From NCBI RefSeq assembly GCF_016863295.1, contig NZ_BOOP01000008.1:124001-188000 (forward strand): 64,000 nucleotides of DNA. The letters run 5' to 3'. This document shows positions 45,339 through 62,704 of the stretch, one piece after another. The notes beneath the pieces are model-generated. The model made no database searches and was not told where the DNA came from. It saw nothing but the letters and a program-made list of their open reading frames with translations. This stretch comes from Planotetraspora phitsanulokensis. Lineage in GTDB: Bacteria > Actinomycetota > Actinomycetes > Streptosporangiales > Streptosporangiaceae. Made by a program: the position numbers and the translations under genes. Position 1 is the stretch's first letter. Every line of letters begins with the position of its first letter.

Positions 45339-46799
45339 GTGCTGGACGGCGAAGTGTCAGTGGTCGCCGCCGGCCGGGCGCGGGTCGCGCCGGCGCATCC
45401 GACCCCGCGGCCGCCGCGGTGGGCGACCCGATACCGGTTCCACGCGGCTCTGTCCGACATGACGTGTGCCCTTCTGGCCGGGGTCGCCGCCGTACTGCTC
45501 AGGTTCGGCGAGGTTACTCCTTATGTGGCGCCGTATGTGGTGTTGAGCGGTGTGCTTCCGCCCGTGTGGGCCGCCATGATCTGTCTCAACCGGGGTTACG
45601 AACCCCGTCTGATCGGGGTGGGCTCCGAGGAGTTCCGCCGGATCGCCCAGTGCGGCTTCATTCTCATCGCGGCGGTCGCCATCACGGCGTACGTGACCAA
45701 GGCCGATCTCGCCCGCGGTTACGTCGTCGTGGCGCTGCCGCTCATGACCGTCCTGACCCTTCTCGCCCGGTACGGCTTACGCCGCCGGCTGCACGGTCGC
45801 CGGCGCCGCGGTGAGGACTGCATGCGCCGGGTGGTGGCGGTGGGTCATCGCGCGGGCATCGCCGAGCTGACCATGAGGTTCCGGCGCGAGCGCTACCACG
45901 GGATGGAGATCGTCGCGGCCTGCCTCCCCGCCGAATCGTCCGGGGAGATCGAGGAGGTCCCCGTCCTGGGCGACTTCACCGACGTGCCCCTCGTCGTGCA
46001 GCAGATGGGGGCGGACACCGTGGCGGTCCTCGCCTGTCCCGAGCTCGACGGCACGGCCCTGCGGAGGCTGGCCTGGCGGCTGGAGCGGACCCGGACCGAC
46101 CTCGTCGTCGCGCCGGCGCTGATGGAGGTGGCGGGCCCGCGCACCACGATCCGGCCGGTGGCGGGGCTTCCCCTGCTCCACGTGGAGCATCCGGATCTCG
46201 CCGGCGCGCGCCAGCTGATCAAGACGGCCTTCGACCGGATCGTCGCGGGGGTCGCCCTGGTTCTGCTCGCCCCGTTGATGCTCGTCGTCGCGATAGCCGT
46301 ACGGGCGTCGAGCCCCGGGCCGGCGCTGTTCCGGCAGACGCGCGTCGGGAAGGACGGCGTGGAGTTCACGATCCTGAAGTTCAGGACCATGCGGAACGAC
46401 GCCGAGGCCCGCAGGGTGGAGCTGGTCAACGAGGGCCACGGCCTGCTGTTCAAGATCCGTCAGGACCCGCGGGTCACCCGCATGGGCGTCTGGCTGCGAC
46501 GGCACTCGCTCGACGAGCTGCCCCAGCTGATCAACGTACTTCGAGGTCACATGTCCCTCGTGGGGCCGCGCCCGCCGCTGCCGGAGGAGGTCGCCCGCTA
46601 CCGCGACGACGTCCGCCGGCGCCTGGTCGTGCGCCCCGGGATGACCGGCCTCTGGCAGGTCAACGGCAGGTCTGATCTTTCCTGGGAGGAATCGGTACGG
46701 TTGGACCTGCGTTACATCGAGAATTGGTCGCTGATGCTGGATCTGCAGATTCTCTGGAAGACCTGGTCAGCGGTCGCGGGCGGCGCGGGAGCTTACTGA
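45339..46799 (+). CDS. initiating sugar-phosphate transferase (WbaP/WcaJ-type) of the glycan locus
   Basis: 486 residues from a GTG at 45339 with GGAGG about five bases upstream (an ATG at 45306 is less well placed). Four N-terminal spans (about 45-165) and a CoA-binding-like domain precede the catalytic PF02397 domain: F-D-R-I-V-A-G-V-A-L then S-P-G-P-A-L-F-R-Q-T-R-V-G, L-K-F-R-T-M-R, S-L-D-E-L-P-Q-L-I-N-V-L and R-P-G-M-T-G-L-W-Q-V. It transfers a hexose-1-phosphate to undecaprenyl phosphate and so starts the repeat unit. Its stop abuts the cysQ-like ATG (TGAATG). Confidence 0.93.
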   Translation: MLDGEVSVVAAGRARVAPAHPTPRPPRWATRYRFHAALSDMTCALLAGVAAVLLRFGEVTPYVAPYVVLSGVLPPVWAAMICLNRGYEPRLIGVGSEEFRRIAQCGFILIAAVAITAYVTKADLARGYVVVALPLMTVLTLLARYGLRRRLHGRRRRGEDCMRRVVAVGHRAGIAELTMRFRRERYHGMEIVAACLPAESSGEIEEVPVLGDFTDVPLVVQQMGADTVAVLACPELDGTALRRLAWRLERTRTDLVVAPALMEVAGPRTTIRPVAGLPLLHVEHPDLAGARQLIKTAFDRIVAGVALVLLAPLMLVVAIAVRASSPGPALFRQTRVGKDGVEFTILKFRTMRNDAEARRVELVNEGHGLLFKIRQDPRVTRMGVWLRRHSLDELPQLINVLRGHMSLVGPRPPLPEEVARYRDDVRRRLVVRPGMTGLWQVNGRSDLSWEESVRLDLRYIENWSLMLDLQILWKTWSAVAGGAGAY

Positions 46800-47561
46800 A
46801 TGACGATTAGGGACGACCACGCCCTCGCGGGGGACCTCGCCACCGAGGCGGGGGAGCGGCTGCTCACGCTCCGGGTCGAGCACGGTTTCGCCGACCAGCG
46901 GGCGCTGAAGGACGCGGGCGACCTCATGTCGCACCGCTACCTCACCGAGGCCCTGCAGCGGCTCCGGCCGAGCGACAGCGTGCTGTCGGAGGAGGCGACC
47001 CGCGAGGAGCGGATGGATCCGCGCCGCCTGTCGGCCGACCGCGTGTGGATCATCGACCCGCTCGACGGCACCCGTGAGTTCTCCGAGGAGGGCCGGTCCG
47101 ACTGGGCCGTACACGTGGCCCTGTGGGAGAGAGGCCGACTGACGGCCGGCGCGGTGGCGCTCCCGGCGCAGGGCAGGACGCTCACGACGGCCGCCCCTCC
47201 CGTGATCGCCGAGCGCGGCGAGCGGTTCCGGATCGCGGTCAGCCGCACCCGCCCCCCTGAGTTCGTGCGGAAACTCGCGTTCCTCGCGGGCGCCGACCTC
47301 GTACCGATCGGCTCCGCCGGGGCCAAGATCTCGGCCGTCCTCACCGGCGAGGTCGAGGCCTACGTCCACGCGGGCGGCCAGTACGAGTGGGATTCCGCCG
47401 CGCCGGTCGCCGTGGCGCTCGCCGCGGGGGCGCACGCCAGCAGGATCGACGGCTCGCCGTTGGTGTACAACCAGGCAGACCCCTCACTGCCGGATATCCT
47501 TGTTTGCCTACCGGATCTGGCGCCAACGTTGCTCGCCGGCATCCGTGACCTTCATCGCTAA
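46800..47561 (+). CDS. cysQ: 3'(2'),5'-bisphosphate nucleotidase (CysQ-like)
   Basis: 253 residues, starting at the base after the sugar-transferase stop. The Li-sensitive phosphatase motif W-I-I-D-P-L-D-G-T-R-E-F is near residue 82, an upstream E-E motif (L-S-E-E-A) near 64, and G-Q-Y-E-W-D-S-A-A-P near 193. CysQ removes phosphate from PAP, the by-product of sulfotransferases, and also trims PAPS (established in mycobacteria). Its place between the sugar transferase and cysDN, with sulfotransferases next, fits PAP recycling for glycan sulfation. Confidence 0.9.
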   Translation: MTIRDDHALAGDLATEAGERLLTLRVEHGFADQRALKDAGDLMSHRYLTEALQRLRPSDSVLSEEATREERMDPRRLSADRVWIIDPLDGTREFSEEGRSDWAVHVALWERGRLTAGAVALPAQGRTLTTAAPPVIAERGERFRIAVSRTRPPEFVRKLAFLAGADLVPIGSAGAKISAVLTGEVEAYVHAGGQYEWDSAAPVAVALAAGAHASRIDGSPLVYNQADPSLPDILVCLPDLAPTLLAGIRDLHR

Positions 47562-47580
47562 TCTCCCGGAGGAAGCACCA

Positions 47581-48495
47581 ATGCTCCAGCGTGACTACAC
47601 GACGTCACAGCTCGACGTGCTCGAGGCCGAGGCGATCCACGTCATGCGCGAGGTCGCGGCCGAATTCGAGCGCCCGTGTCTGCTCTTCTCCGGGGGCAAG
47701 GACTCGATCGTCATGCTACGTGTCGCGGAGAAGGCGTTCTGGCCGGCGCCGATCCCCTTCCCGCTGATGCACGTGGACACCGGGCACAACTTCCCCGAGG
47801 TGATCGACTTCCGGGACCGCCGCGTCGTCGAGCTGAACGCGCGGCTGATCGTGGCCTCGGTCCAGGCGTCCATCGACGCGGGGCGGGTGATGGAGGAGAC
47901 GGGACGGCGCGCCTCGCGCAACCGCCTGCAGACCACGACCCTGCTCGACGCGATCGAGGAGCAGGAGTACGACGCCGTGTTCGGCGGGGCCCGCCGGGAC
48001 GAGGAGAAGGCCAGGGCCAAGGAGCGCGTGTTCTCCTTCCGCGACGACTTCGGCCAGTGGGACCCGAAGAACCAGCGGCCCGAGCTGTGGAACCTCTACA
48101 ACACCCGGATCCGCAAGGGTGAGCACATCCGCGTGTTCCCGCTGTCCAACTGGACCGAGCTGGACATCTGGCACTACATCCAGCGCGAGGGCATCGAGAT
48201 CCCCTCGATCTACTTCGCCCACACCCGCAAGGTGTTCGAGCGTGACGGCATGCTGCTCAGCGACGACGAGGTGGTCCAGCGGGGCGAGGACGAGCCGATC
48301 TTCGAGGCCGTGGTCCGCTACCGGACGGTCGGGGACATGACCTGCACCGGCGCGGTGGCGTCAACGGCCACGACGGTCGAGCAGATCATCGAGGAGGTGG
48401 CCGCGACGAGGATCACCGAGCGCGGCGCCACCCGCGCCGACGACCGCGCGTCCGAGGCCGCCATGGAAGATCGCAAGAAGGAAGGCTACTTCTGA
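47581..48495 (+). CDS. cysD: sulfate adenylyltransferase subunit 2
   Basis: 304 residues from the ATG at 47581; GGAGGAAG lies seven bases upstream. The PP-loop S-G-G-K-D-S-I-V-M-L is near residue 40, M-H-V-D-T-G-H-N-F-P-E follows and the late R-Y-R-T-V-G-D-M-T-C-T-G motif is intact. With CysN it makes APS from sulfate and ATP. The last codons overlap a 40-codon ORF by one base (TGATG). As cysDN sits inside a glycan locus, it is more likely dedicated to PAPS than to Cys synthesis. Confidence 0.96.
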   Translation: MLQRDYTTSQLDVLEAEAIHVMREVAAEFERPCLLFSGGKDSIVMLRVAEKAFWPAPIPFPLMHVDTGHNFPEVIDFRDRRVVELNARLIVASVQASIDAGRVMEETGRRASRNRLQTTTLLDAIEEQEYDAVFGGARRDEEKARAKERVFSFRDDFGQWDPKNQRPELWNLYNTRIRKGEHIRVFPLSNWTELDIWHYIQREGIEIPSIYFAHTRKVFERDGMLLSDDEVVQRGEDEPIFEAVVRYRTVGDMTCTGAVASTATTVEQIIEEVAATRITERGATRADDRASEAAMEDRKKEGYF

Positions 48496-48617
48496 TGGTC
48501 GGCCTCTCTTCACGCGGCGGGGTCACGGAGATCCGGCCCCGCCGGATTCGACGGCCGCTTCCGACGCGCGCCGATCTTCCTGCCGCGAGCCGTACGAACC
48601 TTGGGGAGCACGAGTAA
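48495..48617 (+). CDS. 40-codon ORF bridging cysD and cysN
   Basis: The ATG at 48495 shares a base with the cysD TGA (TGATG) and the TAA at 48615-48617 shares a base with the cysN ATG (TAATG). The product would be 40 residues, Arg/Pro-rich (begins M-V-G-L-S-S-R-G-G-V, ends N-L-G-E-H-E), with no known domain. It contains the cysN ribosome site GGGGAG near its end. Either it keeps ribosomes moving between the two subunit genes or it is a chance frame; the double overlap favours coupling. Confidence 0.45.
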   Translation: MVGLSSRGGVTEIRPRRIRRPLPTRADLPAASRTNLGEHE

Positions 48618-49879
48618 TGGACATCCTTCGTTTCGCGACGGCGGGCAGTGTGGACGACGGCAAGTCGACGCTGATCGGCTGGCTGCTGTTCGACTCCAAG
48701 GCGATCTTCGAGGATCAGCTGGAGGCGGTCGAGCGCACGTCGCGCGACCGGGGCACCGAGTACACCGACCTGTCCCTGCTCACCGACGGGCTCAGGGCGG
48801 AGCGCGAGCAGGGCATCACGATCGACGTCGCCTACCGCTACTTCGCGACGCCGCGGCGGAAGTTCATCATCGCCGACACCCCGGGCCATATTCAGTACAC
48901 CCGCAACATGGTCACCGGCGCCTCGACCGCCGACCTGGCGATCATCCTGATCGACGCCCGCAAGGGCGTGCTGGAGCAGTCGCGGCGGCACGCGTTCCTG
49001 ACGACGCTGCTCCGGGTGCCCCACCTCGTCCTCGCGGTCAACAAGATGGACCTCGTCGACTACGCCGAGTCCCGGTTCGAGGAGATCCGCGAGGAGTTCA
49101 CGGCCTTCGCGTCGAAGCTGAACGCCAGCGACCTCACGTTCATCCCGATCTCCGCGCTGCACGGGGACAACGTGGTCTCCCGCTCGGAGAACATGCCGTG
49201 GTACGAGGGGACCTCGCTGCTCCACCACCTGGAGCACGTGCACATCGCCTCCGACCGCAACCTCGTCGACGTCCGCTTCCCGGTGCAGTACGTGATCCGC
49301 CCGCACAACGCGACGAACCAGTCGCTGCACGACTACCGCGGATACGCGGGTCAGGTGGCCGGGGGCGTCCTCAAGCCGGGCGACGAGGTCATGCACCTGC
49401 CGTCGGGTCTCACCACGCGGATCACGTCGATCGAAAGCTTCGACGGCGCGCTCGACGAGGCTTTCCCGCCGATGTCGGTCACCCTCCGGCTGGAGGACGA
49501 CATCGACATCTCCCGCGGCGACATGATCTGCCGTCCGCACAACCAGCCCCAGGTGGCCCAGGAGATCGACGCGATGGTCTCGTGGATGGCCGACGGGGTG
49601 AGGCTGCAGCCGCGCTCCAAGCTCGTTCTCAAGCACACCACCAGGACCGCGCGGACGGTGGTCAGGGACCTGCATTACCGCCTGGACGTCAACACCCTCC
49701 ACCGGGACGAGACGGCGACCTCACTGGGGCTCAACGAGATCGGCCGGGTGACGCTGCGCACCACCCAGCCGCTGTTCGTCGACGACTACGCCAGGAACCG
49801 CCTCACCGGCGGATTCATCCTGATCGACGAGGCCACCAACGGCACGGTCGGGGCGGGGATGATCGTCGACGCTCACTGA
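48617..49879 (+). CDS. cysN: sulfate adenylyltransferase subunit 1 (GTPase)
   Basis: 420 residues from the ATG at 48617. Translation-factor-like G domain: A-G-S-V-D-D-G-K-S-T (G1), D-T-P-G-H (G3), N-K-M-D (G4), then two beta-barrel domains. GTP hydrolysis by CysN drives APS formation by CysD. Unlike CysNC proteins of many actinobacteria it ends without an APS kinase domain; that activity is supplied by the gene at 61487. No gene for sulfite-forming PAPS reductase is in the window. Confidence 0.96.
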   Translation: MDILRFATAGSVDDGKSTLIGWLLFDSKAIFEDQLEAVERTSRDRGTEYTDLSLLTDGLRAEREQGITIDVAYRYFATPRRKFIIADTPGHIQYTRNMVTGASTADLAIILIDARKGVLEQSRRHAFLTTLLRVPHLVLAVNKMDLVDYAESRFEEIREEFTAFASKLNASDLTFIPISALHGDNVVSRSENMPWYEGTSLLHHLEHVHIASDRNLVDVRFPVQYVIRPHNATNQSLHDYRGYAGQVAGGVLKPGDEVMHLPSGLTTRITSIESFDGALDEAFPPMSVTLRLEDDIDISRGDMICRPHNQPQVAQEIDAMVSWMADGVRLQPRSKLVLKHTTRTARTVVRDLHYRLDVNTLHRDETATSLGLNEIGRVTLRTTQPLFVDDYARNRLTGGFILIDEATNGTVGAGMIVDAH

Positions 49880-49962: not shown

Positions 49963-50874
49963 GTGGCCGACGCTCAGCCGGTGATCTTCGTGGGGGGGCT
50001 GGGCCGTAGCGGCACCACCCTGCTCGAGCGCCTTCTCGGAGAGATTCCGGGGGTGGCGGCGCTCGGAGAGGTCGTCCATCTGTGGGCGCGCGGCGTCCGC
50101 GCCGACGAGCCCTGCGGCTGTGGTTCGCCGTTCTCCCGGTGTGCGTTCTGGACCAAGGTCGGCGCCCGCGCGTTCGGCTACTGGCGGGAGAGCCGGGCCG
50201 TCATGCTGCAGGAGCTCCGCGCCCGCGTGGACCGCACCCGCCGCATCCCGGCCTTCGCCGCCGGGCTGCTGACCCGGGAGGCCGAACTCGCCGAGTACGT
50301 CTCGGCGTACTCGCGGATCTACGCCGCCGCGGCCGAGGTCGCGGCGGCGCGCGTCGTCATCGACTCCAGCAAGCACGCCTCCCTGGCGTTCTGCCTGTCC
50401 GCGACCATGGACTTACGAGTCGTCCACGTGGTGCGCGACCCGCGCGCGGTGGCGGCGTCCTGGCGCAGGAGGGTGCGGCGGCCTGAGGACGGCAGGCCGA
50501 TGGCACGGTGGGCGCCGGCCAGGACGGCGATGCACTGGCTCGCGCAGAACCTGGCCTTCGAGATCCTGCGGTGGAAGGGCGTCCAGGTCGTCCGCGTCCA
50601 CTACGAGGACCTCGTGCAGGATCCCGTCACGACGCTGACGCGGCTGGCCGGCGACCTGCGGCTGCCCGACTCCCGCGAGACGCTCGGCTTCGTCGAGGAC
50701 GGCCGGGCCAGGCTCGGCGTCGCGCACACGGTCTCCGGCAATCCCATGCGGTTCGCCGTGGGCCACATCGAGTTCCACGACCGCCGCGCCGCACTCCGGT
50801 TCCGGCAGCGCTGGCTGGTCACCGCGCTGACCTGGCCGCTGCTGCTCGTGTACGGCTACCCCCTCGCCTACTGA
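49963..50874 (+). CDS. PAPS-dependent sulfotransferase 1
   Basis: 303 residues from a GTG at 49963 (V-A-D-A-Q-P-V-I-F-V-G-G-L). The 5'-phosphosulfate loop is G-R-S-G-T-T-L-L-E-R near residue 13, followed by a four-Cys motif C-G-C-G-x4-R-C, and the 3'-phosphate motif is V-R-D-P-R-A-V-A-A-S-W near 150. It belongs to the PF13469-like group. The last 20 residues are hydrophobic, so membrane association is likely. It is the first sulfotransferase of the locus, 83 bases after cysN. Confidence 0.88.
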   Translation: MADAQPVIFVGGLGRSGTTLLERLLGEIPGVAALGEVVHLWARGVRADEPCGCGSPFSRCAFWTKVGARAFGYWRESRAVMLQELRARVDRTRRIPAFAAGLLTREAELAEYVSAYSRIYAAAAEVAAARVVIDSSKHASLAFCLSATMDLRVVHVVRDPRAVAASWRRRVRRPEDGRPMARWAPARTAMHWLAQNLAFEILRWKGVQVVRVHYEDLVQDPVTTLTRLAGDLRLPDSRETLGFVEDGRARLGVAHTVSGNPMRFAVGHIEFHDRRAALRFRQRWLVTALTWPLLLVYGYPLAY

Positions 50875-50888: not shown

Positions 50889-51806
50889 TTGAACCCGTCC
50901 ATGGGTGTGGTGATCCCCACCCGAGGAGACCGGCCGGACTCGCTCGCCGCCGCGGTGGCCGGCGTGCTGGACCAGGCCTACGGCCGCCGGTTGCAGGTCG
51001 TCGTGGTCGTCGACGCGCCAGACGTGTCGGTCGAGCAGGTGGCCGGGCAACTGGGGAGCGTCATCAGCTCGCCCCGGGGCAGCGTCCGGATCCTGCCTAA
51101 CCGCCAGCGGCCCGGCCTGCCCGGCGCCAGGAACTCCGGGATCGCCGCCCTCGAGACCGAACTCGTGGCCTTCTGCGACGACGACGACCTCTGGCTGCCG
51201 GGCAAGCTCGCCTCACAGGCGGCCGCACTGGCCGAGGAGCCGGAGGCCGACTTCGCGAGCTGCGCGATCGAGGTCGAGTACGGCGCGCGCCGCGTCGCCC
51301 GCCTCGCCGGGACCGCCAGGGTGACCCGGGAGCATCTGACGCGGTCGCGGATGATGATGGTCCACTCATCCACGTTCCTGTTCCGGCGGGGCTCCATCTG
51401 GGTGGACGAGAGCGCCCCCGGCGGTCAGAACGAGGACTGGGACCTCGCGCTGCGCGCCGCGTGGCGGCATCCGATCGTTCATGTCGACCGTCCCCTCGTC
51501 CGGGTGCGCTGGGGAGCCTCGCAGTACGTCACAAAGTGGGCGGACCGCATCGCGGGCCTCGACTGGATGCTCGCCCGCCATCCCGAACTGGCGGCCGACG
51601 CGCGCGGCGCCGCCCGGATCTACGGCCAGCTGGCCTTCTCGCACGCGGCTCTCGGTCACCGCCGCGAGGCTGCCCGCTGGGCGCTCAGGGCCTTCGCGGC
51701 CCGCAGAGGCGAGCCCCGGGCCGCCGTCGCGCTGGCGGTCGCCGGGAGGCTGATCTCCGCGAGCGCCGTGCTGAGCCTGCTCAACGCCCGCGGTCACGGC
51801 ATCTGA
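50889..51806 (+). CDS. GT2 family glycosyltransferase
   Basis: About 305 residues from a TTG at 50889 (GGAGC eight bases upstream) or 301 from the ATG at 50901. V-V-I-P-T-R-G-D-R-P-D-S-L starts the GT-A fold, and A-F-C-D-D-D-D-L-W near residue 98 is the D-x-D metal site. Q-N-E-D-W-D-L-A-L near 185 holds the catalytic base (E-D). It adds a second or later sugar to the lipid-linked unit. It follows sulfotransferase 1 by 14 bases and overlaps the next gene by one base. Confidence 0.88.
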   Translation: MNPSMGVVIPTRGDRPDSLAAAVAGVLDQAYGRRLQVVVVVDAPDVSVEQVAGQLGSVISSPRGSVRILPNRQRPGLPGARNSGIAALETELVAFCDDDDLWLPGKLASQAAALAEEPEADFASCAIEVEYGARRVARLAGTARVTREHLTRSRMMMVHSSTFLFRRGSIWVDESAPGGQNEDWDLALRAAWRHPIVHVDRPLVRVRWGASQYVTKWADRIAGLDWMLARHPELAADARGAARIYGQLAFSHAALGHRREAARWALRAFAARRGEPRAAVALAVAGRLISASAVLSLLNARGHGI

Positions 51807-52651
51807 TGGCCCCGCGTTCGGGGGTGGCGCACGCTCCGGTCCGCAGGCGGGGGCACGGTCGGCGGCACGGACGGGTGGCGGTCGCCGGCGTCAAGGTCGA
51901 TCCGCTGACCGAGGCCCAGGTGGTAGAGCACGTGGTCGCCGCGCTCCGCCGCGGCCGGGGTGGCCACCTCGTCACCCCCAATGTGGACATCTGCCGGGCG
52001 ATCTCACGGCACGCCGACCTGCGCGCCCTGGTCACTCGGGCCGACCTGGCGGTCGCGGACGGCATGCCGCTGGTGTGGGCGGCCCGGCTGCTCGGCCGGC
52101 CCCTGCCCGAGAGGGTCACCGGAGCCGACCTGATCTGGTCGTTGTCCGAGGCCGCCGCCGCCGACGGCGTTCCGGTCTACCTGCTCGGCGGTCCGCCGGG
52201 GGTTGCCGAGACCGCGCGGGACGTGTTGTGCGACCGCTACCCGGGGCTCGTGGTGGCCGGGACCGACGCCCCGCCGTACGGATTCGAGACGTGTCCGGAG
52301 GCTCTCGCCGAGGTGCGGAGGCGGCTCGTCGCGGCCGCCCCTCGGCTGGTCTTCGTCGGGCTCGGCTTCCCGAAGCAGGACCGGCTGATCGCCATGGTCC
52401 GGGCCGATCTGCCCGGGGCGTGGTTCGTGGGCTGCGGCTCCGCGATCGCCTTCACCGCCGGCGCAGTACGGCGGGCGCCCGCGTGGATGGGAGATCACGG
52501 GCTGGAGTGGTTGTTCCGGTTGCTGAGCGAGCCCGGCAGGCTGGCGCGGCGCTACCTCGTCGACGACCTGCCGTTCGCGCTGCGCCTGCTCGCCGGCTGC
52601 CTGCTTAGACGCCTGTGGCGTCGGTCCCGGCTGTTTCGCGGACGTTTGTGA
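51806..52651 (+). CDS. WecG/TagA/CpsF-family glycosyltransferase (GT26)
   Basis: 281 residues from the ATG at 51806, overlapping the GT2 stop (TGATG). After a basic N-terminus, V-T-P-N-V-D-I-C-R, A-D-G-M-P-L-V-W and R-V-T-G-A-D-L are family hallmarks, and F-V-G-L-G-F-P-K-Q-D is the nucleotide-sugar motif near 190. GT26 enzymes add N-acetylmannosamine-type sugars to polyprenyl-diphospho-GlcNAc. It ends the left arm. Together with the WbaP-type transferase and GT2, only three sugar additions are encoded here. Confidence 0.9.
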   Translation: MAPRSGVAHAPVRRRGHGRRHGRVAVAGVKVDPLTEAQVVEHVVAALRRGRGGHLVTPNVDICRAISRHADLRALVTRADLAVADGMPLVWAARLLGRPLPERVTGADLIWSLSEAAAADGVPVYLLGGPPGVAETARDVLCDRYPGLVVAGTDAPPYGFETCPEALAEVRRRLVAAAPRLVFVGLGFPKQDRLIAMVRADLPGAWFVGCGSAIAFTAGAVRRAPAWMGDHGLEWLFRLLSEPGRLARRYLVDDLPFALRLLAGCLLRRLWRRSRLFRGRL

Positions 52652-52713
52652 CCTCACACGTCCCGGCTCGCATGCGCTGCGGCGCGAATGTGTACATGTG
52701 TTAGGGTAGGTAC

Positions 52714-55865: not shown

Positions 55866-56719
55866 CGGTGCCACGAGGGCACTGCCCCGAGCCACTGCTG
55901 GAGGACGGAGTCCCAGGGGGCGAAGTGCGCGCCCAGCCGCCTGCGCACCGACGGGGGCATCTCCGAGGTCCGCGGTTGCGCGTTGTGCACCTCGAACACC
56001 GGGTCGCCCAGCCGTGGCAGTCCCAGGAACTCCAGGACGCGGTCGTAGACGGGGTCGGGCTCGCGGAAGAACGCGCCGCTGTCCAGCACGAGCAGCCGGT
56101 CGCGGCCGACGAGGAGTTCCATGCGGTTCAGCTGTTCGGCGTACCTGCCGCGGGCGACATAGGCGTGGTGGCGGTGGGCGTGGCTGAGGTAGTTGGGGGA
56201 CTCGCGCAGCCGCTCGGCCTCGCCGGCGAGCCGCGCGTCCTCCATGTCCAGTGCACGCTCGAACGACGGCTCGGTCTCGAACCCCCGGGCGAGCTCGTGG
56301 GCGTGTGCTGACGCGGCCCGCTCGACCGGGTCCCTGACCAGCACGATCAGCTTCACGCCGGGGAGGTTCCAGGCGATCCTGGCGGCCGCGAGCGGGTGGA
56401 AGAGGTAGTACGGCGCCGACTCGAAGGCTTGGACGCGGTGGCCGTGGCGGCGCTCGAGCCGCTGCGCGGTGGCCTTGAGCGGGAAGTGCGCCTGGTACCA
56501 GGACAGGTCGCGGTCGTAGCTCACGTCGAAGTAGTGCACGCCCTTGCGCAGCACCGGCTTGAAGATCAACGGATGCCGGGAGAGCGCACGGTAGAGCGAG
56601 GTGGTGCCGCACCGCTGCGCTCCGACGATCAGGAAGGACGGCAACATCCGCGCGCGCGTCGTGAGCATGCCCGTGGTGAGCGAGACGGCATGTGCCGAGC
56701 GCTTCAACGTTGACCTCAC
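55862..56719 (-). CDS. heparan-sulfate-sulfotransferase-like enzyme, sulfotransferase 3
   Basis: 285 residues from a GTG at 56719. I-V-G-A-Q-R-C-G-T-T-S-L-Y-R-A-L is the 5'-PSB loop of the HS N/O-sulfotransferase group (G-A-Q-K-C-G-T-T), followed by K-G-V-H-Y-F-D and W-Y-Q-A-H-F-P. L-V-R-D-P-V-E-R-A-A-S-A-H (3'-PB) is near 110. Known members sulfate sugars of glycosaminoglycans or sulfated glycolipids. It differs in type from sulfotransferases 1 and 2. GTGA overlaps on both ends tie it to the kinase-like gene upstream and flippase downstream. Confidence 0.9.
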   Translation of the reverse strand: MRSTLKRSAHAVSLTTGMLTTRARMLPSFLIVGAQRCGTTSLYRALSRHPLIFKPVLRKGVHYFDVSYDRDLSWYQAHFPLKATAQRLERRHGHRVQAFESAPYYLFHPLAAARIAWNLPGVKLIVLVRDPVERAASAHAHELARGFETEPSFERALDMEDARLAGEAERLRESPNYLSHAHRHHAYVARGRYAEQLNRMELLVGRDRLLVLDSGAFFREPDPVYDRVLEFLGLPRLGDPVFEVHNAQPRTSEMPPSVRRRLGAHFAPWDSVLQQWLGAVPSWHR

Positions 56720-57720
56720 AGCAGGCTCTCCAGATGATCGACGAGGGGGTTGAGCCACAGGGACGACGGGCCGAGCGGCTCGTGGCCGTCCCGGTGGTGC
56801 CGATCGGCGAGGGTGATCAGGTAGTGGGCGGCGGACCTGCGGGCCTCCGCGGAGGACAGGCCGAACGGCTCCAGGAGCAGGCCGGCCTGTGCCAGGCAGG
56901 AGCGGGCCGCCACGGCGGGGCGCATCCGGCGCAGTGCCCGGTTGAAGTAGTAGTGGAGGGCGTCGAACCCGAGGGGGACGCCGGTGGCGAACCGTTCCCA
57001 GTCCCAGACGAGCAGCCGCCCGTCGGGGGCCGCGGACAGGTTCCACGGTGCGAAGTCGCCGTGCCATCCCCATCCGGCGTGGTCATGCAGAGGCGTGCCG
57101 CTCATCCGTGCGGACACCGCCTGCGATCGCGGCCAGGCGGGCTCCCCCGGGAGAGGTCCGTGTGTGGCCGTCCGCCGCCGGCCGAACGAGGCGATCTCGG
57201 CGACCGCGGCGTCGCGGAGCCCCCGGGGCACCGGCGCCGCGGTGACGGGCAGCGCGGAGACCACGAGCACCTCGAGCCCGCGCCACGTGCCCTGATGGAC
57301 GACGGACGGCGGCACGACCACCTTCATGGGGTGATCCGCCAGCATCCGCAGGACCTCCCCCTCGTGACGGACGAGTTCCCTGGCCCGATCCGAGTCGCCG
57401 ATCTTCACGAACGCGATGAGCCCGTCCTCGTCGTGCGCCTCCAGGACTGGCTTGCGGTTGGCCCGCCGGGCCGGCCGTACGTGCACGACCGCGCGGATCC
57501 GCCTGCCGAGCACCTGGCTGAGGTGGGTCTCGATCGTGTCCGGGCCGTCCCACACGGGCACGCCGCGGCCGAGGGCCGCGTGCCAGCGGGTGCGGGGGAC
57601 CAGCCTCCGGGGCACCAGCCGGTGCGGGAGCAGCGTGCGAGACCCCCTCGAGGTGCCCGGCGGATACAGCTCGGCCAGCACCTGGTGGAGGTAGCGCAGA
57701 CGTGTCGGGGTGTCTCTCAT
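56716..57720 (-). CDS. APH/choline-kinase-like phosphotransferase in the glycan locus
   Basis: 334 residues from the ATG at 57720, overlapping the ligase stop (ATGA). The C-lobe has W-H-G-D-F-A-P-W-N-L with catalytic Asp near residue 215 and V-W-D-W-E-R-F for metal binding near 235; L-I-A-F-V-K-I may carry the ATP lysine. It resembles phosphotransferases that act on small alcohols or sugars, and could add phosphate to a sugar of the unit. Its position between the ligase and a sulfotransferase argues for a modification role. Substrate unknown. Confidence 0.75.
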   Translation of the reverse strand: MRDTPTRLRYLHQVLAELYPPGTSRGSRTLLPHRLVPRRLVPRTRWHAALGRGVPVWDGPDTIETHLSQVLGRRIRAVVHVRPARRANRKPVLEAHDEDGLIAFVKIGDSDRARELVRHEGEVLRMLADHPMKVVVPPSVVHQGTWRGLEVLVVSALPVTAAPVPRGLRDAAVAEIASFGRRRTATHGPLPGEPAWPRSQAVSARMSGTPLHDHAGWGWHGDFAPWNLSAAPDGRLLVWDWERFATGVPLGFDALHYYFNRALRRMRPAVAARSCLAQAGLLLEPFGLSSAEARRSAAHYLITLADRHHRDGHEPLGPSSLWLNPLVDHLESLL

Positions 57721-58973
57721 GCGTTCCGCCAGAGAAGGGCGAAGGAGATCAGATACAGGCTCAGCGCGCTGATCAGGCCGTCGTAGACGAACATGTAGAA
57801 CAGCACGAGGATCATGACGAGCGTGCCCGCCTGCCCGATGGGCGTGCGGTCCTGCCAGAACCGGCGGACGGCGCCCGCGAAGAAGCCGACGTACAGCAGC
57901 GCCCCGGCGAATCCCTGGCTGATCAGCAGCAGCCACAACTGGCCGTCGCTGCCCAGAGGGGGATGGCCGCACTCCTCACACCACTGCGTCTTGCCCGTCG
58001 TGATCGTGCTCTGGTTGCCGAAGGCGTTGCGGGTGTTGCCGTACCCGATGAGCGGCGAGGTGGCGGCCACGCGCACGGTGGAGGAGACGGTGAAGGCCCG
58101 GATGTCGTTGCTGTGCGGGCTGTCGATGCGCTGGGCGACGATGGTGCTCAGCGGCGACAGGAAGAACGCCGCCCCCGCGAGCGCGGCGGCGGCCCCGACG
58201 AGCAGCGGGCGGCCGCGCAGTGCGAGGTAGACGGCGGAGATCGCGAGCCCGATCCACAGGCCGCGGTTCAACGAGTAGACGATCGGCACGGCGGCCGCCG
58301 CGAGCAGCACCGCCGCCGTCACCCGCCGGTACGGCCCGCCGTACGCCCACCAGCCGACCACGAACCAGATGACCAGGACGGACACGTTGCTGCCCCAGGC
58401 GTTGGCCCACTCGAACGGCGCCTCGGGACGCGGCGAGCTGTGCCCGAGCACGTGCTGGATCTGCGCCGCCGTCGGATGGATGAGGTTGCGCACGAACGAG
58501 TTGTCGCCGATCCATTCCGGCAGGACGGTCTCGAGCGGCGAGGTGAACTGGAAGCCGGGGGCGAACACGCCCAGCAGGCCGCCGGTGACCGTCGTGATGA
58601 ACAGCACGCCCAGCATCCGCACGAGGGTGAGCTGCGGAAGCTCGTCGAGGGACAGGTTGCCCAGGTAGACGACCATGACGAGCAGAGAGGCGTAGACGGC
58701 GAGGCGCACGAGGTAGCCGGTGACCCGGCCGGGGCTCAGGTCGCCGTAGGTGCCGTCGGGCGTCTCGGCCAGCGTGACGGCGCTGATGAGGTATCCGGCC
58801 AGTAACAGCAGCCACAGGCCGAAGCCCTTGGGCACCCTGATCGGCCGCCTGCGCCACAGGATCACGGCCATCGGCACGGCGAGCACGATGACCGCGAGGC
58901 CGCCGAGCCCGAGTGCCCACCAGACGGGATAGCCGATCAGCAGCGCGCCGACCGGCCACACCGCCGGCCTCAC
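57717..58973 (-). CDS. O-antigen ligase/polymerase-family membrane protein (Wzy/WaaL-like)
   Basis: 418 residues from a GTG at 58973. About eleven hydrophobic segments. A large periplasmic loop (about residues 250-320) contains R-G-L-W-I-G in the preceding region and H-S-N-D-I-R then G-Y-G-N-T-R-N-A-F-G, the pattern of the PF04932 family. As the only polymerase candidate in the locus it likely joins flipped repeat units. Overlaps Wzz by GTGA and the phosphotransferase by ATGA. Confidence 0.87.
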   Translation of the reverse strand: MRPAVWPVGALLIGYPVWWALGLGGLAVIVLAVPMAVILWRRRPIRVPKGFGLWLLLLAGYLISAVTLAETPDGTYGDLSPGRVTGYLVRLAVYASLLVMVVYLGNLSLDELPQLTLVRMLGVLFITTVTGGLLGVFAPGFQFTSPLETVLPEWIGDNSFVRNLIHPTAAQIQHVLGHSSPRPEAPFEWANAWGSNVSVLVIWFVVGWWAYGGPYRRVTAAVLLAAAAVPIVYSLNRGLWIGLAISAVYLALRGRPLLVGAAAALAGAAFFLSPLSTIVAQRIDSPHSNDIRAFTVSSTVRVAATSPLIGYGNTRNAFGNQSTITTGKTQWCEECGHPPLGSDGQLWLLLISQGFAGALLYVGFFAGAVRRFWQDRTPIGQAGTLVMILVLFYMFVYDGLISALSLYLISFALLWRNA

Positions 58974-60181
58974 GTGACCTGCTCCGCCTGGCCGGGCACG
59001 GGCGCGGCGGGCGCGGGCGGCACGGCCACGACGCCCAGCACCCGCACCCCCTGGCGGGCCAGATGCCGTACGGCCTCGGCCACGTCGGCGGACGTGGCCA
59101 GGCCGAGTGGGGCGAGGAGCATCGCCGCGTCCGCGCCGGTGCCGCGCTCCGTCACGACGGAGATGGGCGCGACGGGGGCGAGCGCGGTGCGGAGTCCCTC
59201 GGCCATCGACCGGCCGTGGCCCTCGTCTCCGAGGTCGTCGAGGAGCAGCGTGTGGCGGCCGTCGCCCAGCGCGGTCACCGCGACGGCCGCGAGTTCGCGG
59301 GAGATCGTCGTCTCCGGTCGCCCAGCGGTCTCGGCGAGCATGGGGAGTCCGGTCAGCCGTTCCACGTCGCCGGGCCGGCGCAGGCGGGTGTCGAGCCGGT
59401 CCCGGGCGAACGCCGCTCCCGCGCCGCACAGCAGGCCCAGGAAGAGTCCGCTGCCGAGGTAGATCGGGGCGCTGGGGGCGCTCGGCTCCACGGGCGGCCG
59501 GGCGGGGCTGATGACGGTCCCCGGCGTGATCGCGACGGTCTTGAGGGCGTCGTACTTGACCGTGAGGGTGGACGCCTGGCGGGCCAGCACCGTCTGCCGG
59601 TGGGCCGCGACCGTCCGCGCGGCCGATCCGGGGGGCTGCAGTGGTACGGCGGCGGCCGCCTTCGCCAGGTCGGCGTTCACCTGGCGCAGTTTGGCCGCGA
59701 TGACCTTCTGGTCGGCTGCGAGCGCGTCCGTCGCCGAGCTGAGCCGGTTTCGCAGATATGCGTCGGCGAACGCCTGGGCGCCCTTCGCCGCCGACCCGGG
59801 ATCAGTGGTGGTGAACGAAATGGAAAGAATGGCCGAATTGGGCGGGACGTCGACGCCGACCATTTCACGTAAGCCCTCAGGATCCGTATATTTCAGGTCC
59901 TGGGCGGCTATGGAGGCGACCACGGTGGATTGTGCGATCTGTGACTCGGTGTCGAGGTTGAGCGGTTCTCTCTGCCGGGGGGTTATCAGGTTGAGCTGTT
60001 CCTGCATTCCCGTGGGAAAGACCTGTACCTGGGCCGTGGACGTGTAGGAGACGGGCGTCTCCGTCAGCAGAACCACGCCGCCGATCATCCCTGTGACCAG
60101 GCATGACAGGAAGACTTGCCACCGCCTGCGCAGGACGGAACCGTATTCCGCGATGTCTCTGCTGTGCGGTGAAAGAATCAT
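58970..60181 (-). CDS. chain-length determinant protein (Wzz) with degenerate tyrosine-kinase-like C-terminus
   Basis: 403 residues from the ATG at 60181, GGAG eight bases upstream. A Wzz domain with spans at about 25-45 and 235-255 encloses a periplasmic helical domain. The cytoplasmic part resembles a BY-kinase, but the P-loop is G-D-E-G-H-G-R-S with no lysine, and the Walker B region is only suggested by H-T-L-L-L-D-D. It may be a regulator of chain length without kinase activity. It is the first gene of the right arm; the AT-richer 220-base gap upstream holds the promoter. Confidence 0.88.
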   Translation of the reverse strand: MILSPHSRDIAEYGSVLRRRWQVFLSCLVTGMIGGVVLLTETPVSYTSTAQVQVFPTGMQEQLNLITPRQREPLNLDTESQIAQSTVVASIAAQDLKYTDPEGLREMVGVDVPPNSAILSISFTTTDPGSAAKGAQAFADAYLRNRLSSATDALAADQKVIAAKLRQVNADLAKAAAAVPLQPPGSAARTVAAHRQTVLARQASTLTVKYDALKTVAITPGTVISPARPPVEPSAPSAPIYLGSGLFLGLLCGAGAAFARDRLDTRLRRPGDVERLTGLPMLAETAGRPETTISRELAAVAVTALGDGRHTLLLDDLGDEGHGRSMAEGLRTALAPVAPISVVTERGTGADAAMLLAPLGLATSADVAEAVRHLARQGVRVLGVVAVPPAPAAPVPGQAEQVT

Positions 60182-60400
60182 GTCCAACTCTCCGTGCCCC
60201 TCGCTCGGAGTCGAACTATAGGCGGGTGAGAGGTTTTCCCCCTCCACTATTGAAGATTTTCCACGCAAGAATGACCGGATAGCGGCCTACTTTTCTCGGA
60301 AATTTCTGGACAGATGAGTTGGGAAGAATTGCCCACCCGGTTCCCCCTCTTGGTGGGAAGGTGAACCCCCGCGGGGATGTGGACCACACGAGGGGGAACG

Positions 60401-61462
60401 GTGCGACGAACTGGGGGGGCCGGCTTGGCCGCACTCGCCGGCCTGGCCGTACTGATGGGCGCGGTGGGCTGCTCGGCCGCGAACAGCACGTCACGGGGGG
60501 TCGGGACGTACCTCGAGCAGACGCACAGGCCGCCGAGGGTCACCAGCTGCGTGGTGACGGAGAAGCTGATCCCGACGTGCGGGGCGTGGTGGGGGATCGC
60601 GCCCGACGTCTTCTCCGGCAGGCGGCCGTTGCAGTCGGTCCTGACGGCCGAGCGGCGGATGGGCCGCCGGGCGGACATCGTGCACGTCTACCACCGGGGT
60701 GACGAACTGTTCCCCACGCCTCAGGAGCGCGCCGTCGCCCGGGGCCCCCGCCTACTGCTCGTCAACTGGAAACCGGCGCCGGACCGCACGTGGGCCCAGG
60801 TGGCCCGGGGCGAGGTGGACGACCGCATCGACCGGCTCGCCGGCTACATCACCCGGACCTTCCCCGGCCGCTTCTTCCTGACGATCCACCACGAGCCCGA
60901 GGACGACGTCCGCCCGGGCGAGGGGTACTCGGCCACCGACTACGTGGCCATGTACCGCCACGTCGTCTCCCGCCTTCGGGCCCGGGGCGTCCAGAACGCC
61001 GTGACGGTGATGACCTACATGGGGGCGCCCAACTGGGCGTCCAAGCCGTGGTTCGAGTCGCTCTACCCGGGCGACGACGTGGTCGACTGGGTCGCCATCG
61101 ACCCCTACGCCGACTCGATGGTGACCGACTTCGCCAGCATGGTGAACAAGACCCGCCCGGAATATCCCCAGTGGCCGGGCTTCTATCGGTGGATGCAGGG
61201 GCGTTTCCCCGGTAAGCCGATCATGATCGCCGAATGGGGCGCCTTCGAGCGATCGGGCTCGCCCAGGTTCAAGCGCGACTTCTTCACGTCCGTCGCGCGG
61301 CAGATCGACGACTACCCGCAGATCAAGGCGCTGGTGTACTTCGACTCGCCGGTGGCGCCGCGCGGGGACACCCGGTTCGACACGACTCCGAGCGGCGGCC
61401 GCGCGTTCGCCGATCTCGGACGCGAGCCCGAGTTCTCCGGCACGCGTGTCCCCACCCGCTGA
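60401..61462 (+). CDS. GH26-like glycoside hydrolase lipoprotein
   Basis: 353 residues. GTG at 60401 with AGGGGG five bases upstream is preferred to the ATG at 60377, whose GGGG is too close. Lipobox-like L-M-G-A-V-G-C ends the signal. H-H-E-P-E-D-D near residue 165 has the acid/base Glu and I-A-E-W-G-A-F-E near 275 the nucleophile Glu, as in GH26 mannanases/lichenases. A surface hydrolase trimming or releasing the glycan is likely. Divergent from the right-arm operon. GTTCCCCCTC (60340-60349) and its complement (60390-60399) lie upstream. Confidence 0.82.
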   Translation: MRRTGGAGLAALAGLAVLMGAVGCSAANSTSRGVGTYLEQTHRPPRVTSCVVTEKLIPTCGAWWGIAPDVFSGRRPLQSVLTAERRMGRRADIVHVYHRGDELFPTPQERAVARGPRLLLVNWKPAPDRTWAQVARGEVDDRIDRLAGYITRTFPGRFFLTIHHEPEDDVRPGEGYSATDYVAMYRHVVSRLRARGVQNAVTVMTYMGAPNWASKPWFESLYPGDDVVDWVAIDPYADSMVTDFASMVNKTRPEYPQWPGFYRWMQGRFPGKPIMIAEWGAFERSGSPRFKRDFFTSVARQIDDYPQIKALVYFDSPVAPRGDTRFDTTPSGGRAFADLGREPEFSGTRVPTR

Positions 61463-61486
61463 TCCACCGGGCGGGGACGCCGCCGA

Positions 61487-62704
61487 TCAGCGGATCCAGC
61501 CCCCGGAGGTGAGCAGGGTGAGCACGGTCCCCACGGAACGCTCGACCGTCACCCCGGTGGTGTCGATCACGAGCTCGGCGTCGTCGGGCGCCTCGTACGG
61601 ATCGGAGATCCCCGTGAACTCGGGGATCAGCCCCGCGCGGGCCTTGGCGTACAGGCCCTTCCTGTCGCGGCGCTCGCACTCCTCCAGCGGTGTCGCGACA
61701 TGGACGAGCAGGAAGTCGGCGCCGACCTCCTCCACCATGGCCCGCACCTCGTCGCGGGTGTCCGCGTAGGGCGCGATCGGCGCGCAGATGGCCAGGCCGC
61801 CGTGCCGGGCGACCTCCGCGGCGACGAAGCCGATCCGCCGGATGTTCAGGTCGCGGTCCTCCCGGGAGAAGGTGAGCCCCGCGGACAGCAACTGCCGCAC
61901 CACGTCGCCGTCCAGATAGGTGACCGTGCGCCCGCCCCGTTCGAGCAACGCGTCGCGCAGGCCGCGTGCGACCGTCGACTTGCCCGACCCCGACAGGCCG
62001 GTGAAGAACACCACGAGTCCCCGCCGGTGCGGCGGTCCCGGGATGACGACGGGGGCGGGCCCGGCGTAGTGCTCGGTCGCGCCGTAGTTGCGCGCCACAT
62101 GCTCACGCAACTCCAGGTCGATCTCGGCGTCCTCGCGGGGCGCGAGCGGCACGGCGACCACGGTCGATCCGGCCAGCCGCTCCGAGGCCTTGAGCGCCGC
62201 GCGCACCACCGAGGGGCCGCTCTCGCCGAACACCAGCGGCATCAGCACGATGGTGGCCTCCAGCTCCTCGGCCGTCGCGGCCACGTCGTCGAGGACGGTG
62301 GAGTCGAGCGGCCCCCGCATGGTCACGGCGAGGATCTCCCCGTCCGGGAGGTCCTTGCGGACCTCGTCGGGGGTACGGCGTAGCCGGGCGAACGGGCCGT
62401 AGGCGGGTGCGTCGAGTGCCGCCACCGGGCCGGCCGCGTGGTGGCCGTCCCGCTCCTCGACGGTCAGCGTGGCCACGGCCGCGCCCTCTGGATCCTTGAG
62501 CGTCACCCGGGCGCCGGGAGGGATGTCGTCGGGAAGGGCGAGTGTGATCGGGTCCGGCCAGGGCGTCCCGTCGGACAGCCGGCCGTTCTCGGCCACCGCG
62601 TTCGCGTCGGCCGAGGTCAGGAAGCCGGTCAGCGGCGCGAACGCCCCGGAGAGCAGCAACTCCAGGTCCGCCAGCTCCCGCGCGTCGGGAGTCCACTCAG
62701 TCAT
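61487..62704 (-). CDS. cysC: adenylyl-sulfate (APS) kinase with N-terminal ATP-sulfurylase-like domain
   Basis: 405 residues from the ATG at 62704. N-terminal 60 residues (L-L-L-S-G-A-F-A-P-L-T-G-F) are the PUA-like part of ATP sulfurylase; the middle region lacks the Q-x-R-N-P / H-x-G-H catalytic motifs. The C-terminal APS kinase (from about residue 225) has G-L-S-G-S-G-K-S-T, L-D-G-D-V-V-R, R-E-D-R-D-L-N-I-R-R-I-G-F and K-G-L-Y-A-K-A-R. It makes PAPS from APS. It complements the kinase-less CysN at 48617 and thus feeds the three sulfotransferases. Confidence 0.93.
   Translation of the reverse strand: MTEWTPDARELADLELLLSGAFAPLTGFLTSADANAVAENGRLSDGTPWPDPITLALPDDIPPGARVTLKDPEGAAVATLTVEERDGHHAAGPVAALDAPAYGPFARLRRTPDEVRKDLPDGEILAVTMRGPLDSTVLDDVAATAEELEATIVLMPLVFGESGPSVVRAALKASERLAGSTVVAVPLAPREDAEIDLELREHVARNYGATEHYAGPAPVVIPGPPHRRGLVVFFTGLSGSGKSTVARGLRDALLERGGRTVTYLDGDVVRQLLSAGLTFSREDRDLNIRRIGFVAAEVARHGGLAICAPIAPYADTRDEVRAMVEEVGADFLLVHVATPLEECERRDRKGLYAKARAGLIPEFTGISDPYEAPDDAELVIDTTGVTVERSVGTVLTLLTSGGWIR

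What the first reader, a model, noticed from the sequence alone, without database searches (positions are those of the whole stretch)
45339..62704. Candidate locus for a sulfated exopolysaccharide with its own PAPS supply
In one stretch lie an initiating sugar-phosphate transferase, CysQ, CysD, CysN, three different sulfotransferases, GT2, GT26, a phosphotransferase, a flippase, an O-antigen ligase-type polymerase, Wzz, a GH26-like lipoprotein and APS kinase. Sulfate activation, PAP removal and a Wzx/Wzy-type pathway in one place imply a dedicated sulfated surface glycan. Sulfated glycolipids are known in mycobacteria; a sulfated Wzx/Wzy-type polymer of this design is not one I know in actinobacteria.
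Basis: partly seen in the sequence, partly recalled or inferred. Interest (0 to 1): 0.87.

Follow-up and report, generated by a model that had tools for sequence, protein, structure and literature searches.

The report
Sulfated exopolysaccharide locus of spore-forming actinomycetes
This stretch of a soil actinomycete genome looks like a complete factory for a sulfated surface sugar polymer, including the only sulfate-activating genes found in the genome; a sister version in Actinoplanes was recently shown to be needed for normal spore cases, so the locus is real and partly known, and its one-site layout points to parts of that known pathway that may still be missing.

Summary
The gene set is real. 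Between pth and mfd lie an initiating sugar-phosphate transferase, cysQ, cysD, cysN, three unrelated sulfotransferases, GT2, GT26, flippase, polymerase, Wzz, an APH-like kinase, a GH26-like lipoprotein and an APS kinase. The genus is Planotetraspora. Across the family sample, 17 of 26 complete pth-mfd regions hold all 12 core genes. It is the one-site counterpart of Actinoplanes missouriensis wps-1, published June 2026, where deletions disturb sporangia and a sulfated polysaccharide was predicted but not verified (PMC13390465). cysDN is the only ATP sulfurylase found in the genome, so it must also serve cysteine synthesis. Only the PAPS arm (APS kinase, CysQ) looks surplus to assimilation, because CysH has the Fe-S cysteines of APS reductases. 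Even that arm is not exclusive: seven more sulfotransferase genes lie elsewhere, and APS kinase persists in family genomes without this polymerase. New here: the APS kinase carries an inactive-looking ATP-sulfurylase domain, and A. missouriensis keeps a matching PGT-cysQ-cysD-cysN block at a second site, which could complete the published pathway. No chemistry yet shows sulfate in the polymer.

The parts
45339..46799 (+). initiating polyprenyl-phosphate sugar-phosphate transferase (PGT)
   Evidence: PF02397 4e-69 and TIGR03025 over cut-off; 56.6% to the pth-linked PGT of the A. missouriensis-like genome G791
46800..47561 (+). CysQ-like PAP phosphatase
   Evidence: PF00459 over cut-off; TIGR01331 best NCBIfam hit, below its cut-off; DPLDGT and WDSAA motifs
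47581..48495 (+). CysD, ATP sulfurylase small subunit; the only CysD found in the genome
   Evidence: TIGR02039 over cut-off; own-genome search; SGGKDS
48617..49879 (+). CysN, ATP sulfurylase GTPase subunit, not fused to CysC
   Evidence: TIGR02034 574 bits, cut-off 336; G-protein motifs intact
49963..50874 (+). sulfotransferase 1 (counterpart of WpsB)
   Evidence: PF13469 1.3e-17; RSGTT and RDPRAVAAS; 50% to G791
50901..51806 (+). GT2 glycosyltransferase (counterpart of WpsA)
   Evidence: PF00535; 51% to G791
51875..52651 (+). WecG/TagA/CpsF (GT26) glycosyltransferase (counterpart of WpsC)
   Evidence: PF03808 1.1e-56; TIGR00696 over cut-off; 51% to G791
53626..54549 (-). sulfotransferase 2; no counterpart in the two G791 regions
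   Evidence: PF13469 4.4e-12; RSGTS and RDPVSFVAS
54546..55865 (-). Wzx-type flippase (counterpart of WpsG)
   Evidence: PF01943 at cut-off, PF13440 over cut-off; 43% to G791
55862..56668 (-). sulfotransferase 3 (counterpart of WpsH, heparan-sulfate-sulfotransferase type)
   Evidence: PF00685 4.1e-11; RCGTT and RDPVERAAS; 57% to G791
56716..57720 (-). APH-like phosphotransferase (counterpart of WpsI)
   Evidence: invariant HGDxxxxN and DWE in 18 aligned proteins; 38% to G791
57717..58961 (-). Wzy-type polymerase / O-antigen ligase-like (counterpart of WpsJ)
   Evidence: Wzy_C in 12 of 15 aligned family members, not in the window protein itself; 40% to G791
58970..60181 (-). Wzz-type chain-length determinant (counterpart of WpsK)
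   Evidence: partial NCBIfam matches to chain-length determinants, below cut-off; 33% over 242 aa to G791; start chosen from the reading
60377..61462 (+). GH26-like lipoprotein; counterpart of a second GH26-like gene beyond AMIS_7390 rather than of WpsE
   Evidence: PF02156 5.7e-4; 44% to the downstream gene and 26% to the WpsE-position gene of G791; lipobox-like AVGC by eye
61487..62704 (-). APS kinase (C-terminal) fused to a truncated ATP-sulfurylase-like domain without catalytic motif; the only full APS kinase found in the genome (counterpart of AMIS_7390)
   Evidence: PF01583 4.3e-57; own-genome searches; alignments; AlphaFold model and VIA alignment
44049..44669 (+). pth, conserved left border of the locus (mfd is the right border, beyond the window, in L004)
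   Evidence: PF01195 5.3e-68; mfd by Pfam; synteny

Best explanation
The locus makes and exports a sulfated heteropolysaccharide by the Wzx/Wzy route, and it is the one-site form of the wps-1 pathway of Actinoplanes missouriensis. PGT loads the first sugar phosphate on a polyprenyl carrier, and GT2 and the WecG-type enzyme extend the repeat unit. CysDN make APS, the APS kinase makes PAPS, and two or three sulfotransferases sulfate the unit, possibly with phosphorylation by the APH-like kinase. CysQ removes the by-product PAP. Wzx flips the unit, Wzy polymerises it, Wzz sets chain length, and the GH26 lipoprotein trims or remodels the polymer outside. Because CysH looks like an APS reductase, APS is a branch point: CysDN serve both cysteine synthesis and sulfation, while APS kinase and CysQ serve sulfation only. 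The polymer most likely belongs to the spore or sporangium surface. Shown here: gene content, order, copy number in this assembly, motifs, conservation, orthology. Shown by others for the ortholog: deletions disturb sporangia. Inferred: the chemistry, the roles of individual enzymes, the developmental role in this genus.
For: Families and motifs. Block conserved in 5 of 5 genomes of the genus; among 42 pth-linked regions of the family CysQ, CysD and CysN occur in 42, PGT in 37, and 17 of 26 complete pth-mfd regions hold all 12 core genes. Purifying selection on the 15 locus genes (dN/dS 0.047 to 0.351 in four species pairs). One CysD, one full APS kinase, no Sat; reductive genes elsewhere without cysDN; CysH with CC, CxxC and ECGIHL. 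Orthology to wps-1: all 11 wps genes are recognisable in G791, 8 of them with a clear counterpart in the window, plus AMIS_7390. Single-gene deletions of all wps genes but wpsD, and of AMIS_7390, disturb sporangia or spore release (PMC13390465). Sulfated capsules of Cobetia and Vibrio with reported structures are encoded with cysDNC-type genes (Cobetia also cysQ) and sulfotransferases in the cluster (PMC11766843, PMC11641403; passages).
Against: No sulfate has been measured in any polymer from this locus or from wps-1 as far as the papers seen tell. APS kinase occurs in 291 of 297 family genomes but this Wzy in 221 and this ST3 type in 229, so PAPS must have further uses. Seven other sulfotransferase genes lie elsewhere in the genome. 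CysH is over the cut-off of two NCBIfam models named PAPS reductase (NF002537, TIGR00434) and 2.8 bits under that of the APS_reductase model, so its APS type rests on the cysteine motif and on scoring above the strict PAPS_reductase model. In A. missouriensis deletion of wpsB left sporangia normal by SEM, though fewer spores were released, and AMIS_7390 is not switched on with wps-1. Hosts such as Nonomuraea or Microbispora do not form Actinoplanes-type sporangia (recalled), so a role in sporangia cannot be general. The window Wzy itself has no Pfam hit.
Confidence: 0.8

Rival explanations
1. The cysQDN and APS kinase genes are housekeeping genes for sulfate assimilation that merely flank an exopolysaccharide locus at the pth-mfd site; the sulfation capacity of the EPS is incidental.
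For: cysDN is the only ATP sulfurylase found in the genome. Regions without the polymerase still have pth-cysQDN (G045, G066, G088). APS kinase is in 263 of 263 high-quality family genomes. AMIS_7390 is not switched on together with wps-1. CysH passes two models named PAPS reductase.
Against: APS kinase and CysQ have no place in APS-reductase assimilation (CysH motif; C. glutamicum lacks APS kinase, PMC1266029 passages). PGT is in 37 of 42 pth regions and in 9 of 11 Micromonosporaceae-type genomes directly beside cysQ. Deleting AMIS_7390 gives severe sporangium defects without a macroscopic growth difference.
Confidence: 0.25
2. The sulfotransferases act on something other than the polymer, for example a glycolipid as in mycobacteria or a secreted glycoprotein.
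For: Sulfotransfer_3/1 domains do not define the acceptor. The mycobacterial precedents are glycolipids (recalled). The two wps sulfotransferase mutants differ in severity.
Against: All three genes lie in same-strand runs with GT or Wzx/Wzy genes, two of them (ST1, ST3) in 34 of 42 regions each; no gene of the block was identified as an acyltransferase, Pks or MmpL.
Confidence: 0.12
3. The last gene is a true bifunctional ATP sulfurylase/APS kinase, as its family name suggests and as the Actinoplanes paper takes AMIS_7390 to be.
For: The top NCBIfam model is the bifunctional one (PRK05537, 366 bits, cut-off 669). The domain has the ATP sulfurylase fold. In 12 of 12 Micromonosporaceae-type proteins and five family proteins the first of the two motif histidines is kept.
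Against: No PF01747 match in the genome. Where Aquifex reads QTRNPMHRVHE the window reads TMRGPLDSTVL; none of the 42 proteins aligned keeps the QTRN part or the second histidine. The domain ends near residue 217, equivalent to yeast residue 291 of 386. A. missouriensis has its own cysDN.
Confidence: 0.03

Closest known systems
wps-1 cluster plus AMIS_7390 of Actinoplanes missouriensis (Tezuka and Ohnishi 2026, PMC13390465; abstract, sections 5, 16, part 1 of 2 of section 17, and passages read)
   Same: Wzx, heparan-type sulfotransferase, kinase-like protein, Wzy and Wzz in the same order, with a GT2, a GT26 and a sulfotransferase on one side and the two-domain APS kinase and a GH26-like gene on the other; predicted sulfated EPS
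   Different: window has PGT, cysQ, cysD, cysN and a third sulfotransferase in the same block and another orientation of ST1, GT2 and GT26; lacks the WpsF methyltransferase and WpsD; in G791 PGT-cysQ-cysD-cysN lie at pth, about 1.4 Mb away if the chromosome is circular; sporangium role shown only there
Cobetia marina KMM 1449 and Vibrio sp. KMM 8419 sulfated capsule clusters (PMC11766843, PMC11641403; passages read, start of abstracts in listings)
   Same: PAPS genes (cysD, cysN/C; cysQ in Cobetia) and sulfotransferases inside a polysaccharide locus; structure of the sulfated polymer reported
   Different: ABC-transporter capsules of Gram-negatives; in Vibrio cysDNC are second copies, here the only copy found
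xss / synechan of Synechocystis 6803 (PMC8205485; passages read)
   Same: Wzx/Wzy-type sulfated EPS with two sulfotransferases; sulfate measured
   Different: eight glycosyltransferases and its own regulators; a text search found no mention of PAPS, APS kinase or adenylyltransferase
Two-domain APS kinases of Thiobacillus denitrificans (3cr8) and Entamoeba histolytica (PMC13213808, passages read; the T. denitrificans paper itself was not held)
   Same: N-terminal ATP-sulfurylase-like domain without activity, C-terminal APS kinase; 3cr8 is the best sequence match in the PDB
   Different: the Planotetraspora domain is shorter, about 220 residues; its role is unknown; in Entamoeba it is reported to raise kinase activity

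Membership tests
Wzx/Wzy-dependent exopolysaccharide pathway | initiating polyprenyl-phosphate transferase and glycosyltransferases | tested here: met
   PF02397/TIGR03025 over cut-off; GT2 and WecG over cut-off
Wzx/Wzy-dependent exopolysaccharide pathway | Wzx flippase and Wzy polymerase | tested here: met
   PF01943 at cut-off; Wzy_C in 12 of 15 aligned family members though not in the window protein itself
Wzx/Wzy-dependent exopolysaccharide pathway | Wzz-type co-polymerase | tested here: inconclusive
   only partial NCBIfam matches under cut-off; 33% to the WpsK position
PAPS-dependent sulfotransferases | sulfotransferase domain with 5'-PSB and 3'-PB motifs | tested here: met
   three proteins over Pfam cut-off; motifs in all three; motif names recalled
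Dedicated second PAPS supply | a second cysDN/sat set for assimilation elsewhere | tested here: not met
   one CysD, no Sat match in the genome
Dedicated second PAPS supply | assimilation needs APS only (APS-reductase CysH) | tested here: inconclusive
   for: CC at 129, CAPC at 212, ECGIHL at 237, TIGR02055 APS_reductase 232.5 bits against TIGR02057 PAPS_reductase 169.8; against: TIGR02055 is 2.8 bits under its cut-off and NF002537 and TIGR00434, named PAPS reductase, are over theirs; activity not testable here
Bifunctional ATP sulfurylase/APS kinase | intact ATP sulfurylase catalytic motif and full catalytic domain | tested here: not met
   motif lost, domain truncated
Two-domain APS kinase with inactive ATPS-like domain | ATPS fold before an APS kinase, catalytic motif lost | tested here: met
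wps-1 type locus | shared gene set with A. missouriensis wps-1 and AMIS_7390 | tested here: met
wps-1 type locus | required for sporangium or spore formation | not testable with these tools
   shown by others for A. missouriensis only
Sulfated polysaccharide | sulfate ester in the polymer | not testable with these tools
   needs chemistry

The most novel reading that the evidence does not exclude
These bacteria have built the only entrance to sulfur metabolism, ATP sulfurylase CysDN, into a developmental glycan locus, so that APS is a shared pool from which growth (CysH) and spore-coat sulfation (APS kinase) compete. The inactive ATP-sulfurylase domain on the APS kinase is the valve at this branch: it docks on CysDN or senses APS/PAPS and gates flow into sulfation. 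The mirror arrangement is known in Penicillium, where an inactive APS-kinase domain regulates ATP sulfurylase (as told in PMC13213808).
Probability: 0.25. Interest if true: 0.75.

Novelty: new variant of a known kind. Interest (0 to 1): 0.58.

Why it matters
Two of the papers seen still call bacterial sulfated polysaccharides exclusive to cyanobacteria, though marine capsules with reported structures exist. This locus suggests that they are an old, widespread trait of two large actinomycete families. It explains the unexpected phenotype of the Actinoplanes APS kinase mutant as loss of PAPS. It names candidate missing parts of that published pathway: the pth-linked PGT, CysQ, CysDN and a second GH26. 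It makes the prediction directly testable in a genetically tractable strain. It also offers a natural case of an inactive enzyme domain at a metabolic branch point, and a source of bacterial carbohydrate sulfotransferases.

Tried and rejected
Tried: gene calls by my own codon-usage dynamic programming, not a standard gene finder, so starts are approximate. Wzy and the kinase-like protein gave no Pfam hit alone; Wzy was settled through orthologs, the kinase only by motif. Structure jobs for Wzy and the kinase were not accepted; a Foldseek PDB search was not accepted either; one structure, of the APS kinase, and one VIA comparison were obtained. I looked for remnants of the IrrE-like gene pair, found in two sister species between WecG and ST2, in the window gap and found none at E 1e-3. 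A last Pfam call failed because I gave a whole locus with stops and was not repeated, so the second GH26-like gene of G791, the second gene of that pair and the protein after SigE have no Pfam test of their own.

Considered and rejected: a true bifunctional Sat/APS kinase (motif lost); a strictly dedicated PAPS supply (single cysDN, other sulfotransferases, APS kinase kept without Wzy); chance clustering (synteny); that joining with cysDN is unique to this family (G336 of another family has it too).

Rows dropped: of the 40 regions fetched, three (L052, L083, L088) were left out of the 42-region count, because their cysD is a different copy not next to pth; L083 and L088 are from genomes whose pth locus I did not look at. 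The 42 are 37 of those 40, four genus members and the window. The 40 were chosen by me from the best-scoring CysD places, aiming at many genera, not at random. In one search my gene calls missed Wzy in L206 and L207. Hand counts, not computed: genomes with more than one CysD (27 of 297); Wzy matches outside the family at E below 1e-100 (23 of 394 genomes searched); Micromonosporaceae-type matches (103 of 150 at E 1.7e-77 or better, 19 only at 1e-45 to 1e-56).

Full report
WHAT IS THERE. From left to right after glmU-prs-rplY-pth: PGT, cysQ, cysD, cysN, sulfotransferase 1 (ST1), GT2 and WecG/GT26 on the plus strand. Then, on the minus strand, sulfotransferase 2 (ST2), Wzx, sulfotransferase 3 (ST3), an APH-like kinase, Wzy and Wzz. 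A GH26-like lipoprotein (plus) and an APS kinase (minus) follow, then a SigE-family sigma factor gene, and mfd beyond the window (L004; Pfam domains of Mfd). Weak calls are the GH26 (E 5.7e-4), Wzz and the window Wzy; they rest mainly on orthologs.

WHERE IT COMES FROM. G000 has 9.17 Mb in 95 contigs. The named scan gives Planotetraspora records as closest (97 to 86% identity in Wzy), four of them with contig lengths equal to those of G001-G004. The window is thus a Planotetraspora, by elimination perhaps P. phitsanulokensis (inference, species list recalled).

SULFUR METABOLISM OF THE GENOME. There is one CysD, one full APS kinase and no Sat-type ATP sulfurylase. The APS kinase search gave two further matches of 22 bits, nominally over Pfam's cut-off but covering 70 and 50 of 152 positions at E 5e-4 and 8e-4. 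A NirA/SIR-like reductase, a 50-residue protein (CysX-like by eye only), CysH and CbiX lie together on contig 13 without cysDN. CysH has CC at 129, CAPC at 212 and ECGIHL. Of the two NCBIfam models that separate the types it scores higher with APS_reductase (232.5 bits, 2.8 under cut-off) than with PAPS_reductase (169.8, cut-off 254); it also passes two broader models named PAPS reductase. In C. glutamicum, which lacks APS kinase, and in M. tuberculosis this CysH reduces APS directly (PMC1266029, passages). So CysDN must feed both branches, whereas APS kinase and CysQ look surplus to assimilation. The genome has 11 matches to Sulfotransfer_3 in ten genes, three of them in this locus; the single APS kinase must serve all that are active.

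CONSERVATION. All five genomes of the genus have a single CysD and the whole block. In the family sample CysD is found in 290 of 297 genomes, APS kinase in 291 of 297 (263 of 263 high-quality ones), this Wzy in 221 of 297 and this ST3 type in 229 of 297. Among 42 regions at pth, CysQ, CysD and CysN occur in 42, PGT in 37, ST1 in 34 and ST3 in 34; some of the 42 are cut by the fetched stretch. Of 26 regions that reach mfd, 17 hold all 12 core genes, and APS kinase is inside in 23. In the other three (G045, G048, G088) it lies 0.3 to 0.4 kb beyond mfd, the mfd-APS kinase pair being turned round. Regions that lack most of the EPS genes still have pth-cysQDN. The 15 locus genes are under purifying selection. 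In the class sample 77 of 394 genomes have a related Wzy, 35 of them of the same family. Of 20 such regions read outside the family, many have PT, ST3, ST1 and GT2 beside it, mostly without cysDN. But G336, of another family, has PGT-cysQ-cysD-cysN joined to its EPS genes (L330), and G319 has a similar EPS block between pth and mfd (L155) while PGT, APS kinase and cysNDQ lie together elsewhere (L321). The joined arrangement is therefore older than, or not confined to, this family.

THE PUBLISHED SISTER. Tezuka and Ohnishi (PMC13390465; abstract, sections 5, 16, part 1 of 2 of section 17, and passages) describe wps-1 of A. missouriensis. Deletion of each gene but wpsD, and of the adjacent AMIS_7390, disturbs sporangia or spore release. 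They predict a sulfated polysaccharide and call the AMIS_7390 phenotype unexpected. G791 (one contig, 8773466 bp) carries exactly that series, WpsD and WpsF included, with ST1 50%, GT2 51%, GT26 51%, Wzx 43%, ST3 57%, kinase 38%, Wzy 40% and Wzz 33% identity to the window, and 65% over the APS kinase domain. The window GH26 matches WpsE poorly (26%) and a second gene just beyond AMIS_7390 better (44%). PGT, cysQ, cysD and cysN of G791 lie beside pth at 8.12 Mb in the window's order (57, 60, 67 and 76%). Of 11 such Micromonosporaceae-type genomes, cysQ-cysD-cysN is together in 11, with PGT in 9; pth is present in the 8 of these read at 20 kb. APS kinase is within the fetched region in 12 of 19 wps regions. 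So the window shows in one place what Actinoplanes keeps in two. The published wps-1 gene list has no initiating transferase; the pth-linked PGT and cysQDN are candidates for the missing parts.

FUNCTION AND NOVELTY. A sulfated Wzx/Wzy polymer with a PAPS arm is the best reading (0.8). Functional precedents with reported sulfate are the Cobetia and Vibrio capsules and synechan. A role in spores or sporangia is taken from Actinoplanes. The locus is also in genera without such sporangia (recalled), so the general role may be the spore or hyphal surface (inference). In the listings of searches of the open-access library (5 of 5, 20 of 257, 10 of 13, 12 of 34, 10 of 29, 8 of 2456 and 8 of 32 papers shown) I saw no paper on this locus in Streptosporangiales, on its joined cysQDN block, or on the inactive ATP-sulfurylase domain in actinomycetes. 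Subscription papers are mostly not held there, so this is weak evidence of absence.

Noticed in passing
L043:13259-14430 and L047:13642-15296: A Peptidase_M78 (IrrE/ImmA-like) protein and a partner gene are inserted between WecG and ST2 in two Planotetraspora species; no remnant was found in the window gap 52652-53625.
   Followed up: partly
L052, L083, L088: Some family members carry a second, different cysD with a long CysN (616-634 aa, CysNC-fusion length) away from pth, beside unrelated genes; L088 has a sulfotransferase-like gene nearby (by eye).
   Followed up: partly
L332-L337 (own genome contigs 26, 13, 9, 29, 36): Six of the seven further sulfotransferase genes of the own genome were read with their neighbours; they stand mostly singly, one (L335) near a Wzy_C protein and a glycosyltransferase-like gene, possibly a second glycan locus.
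   Followed up: partly
L003:8658-12147: A NirA/SIR-like reductase, a 50-residue protein, CysH and CbiX stand together without cysDN, unlike the cysIXHDN cluster of Corynebacterium.
   Followed up: yes
window 62823-64000: A SigE-family sigma factor gene and a following gene sit near the APS kinase in 7 of 31 regions with APS kinase (3 of 5 Planotetraspora); possible local regulator.
   Followed up: no
L321 (G319), L326 (G309), L327 (G356), L329 (G571): In other families an APS kinase lies within a few genes of cysDN (with PGT in G319), a second kind of PAPS gene grouping separate from the EPS genes.
   Followed up: no
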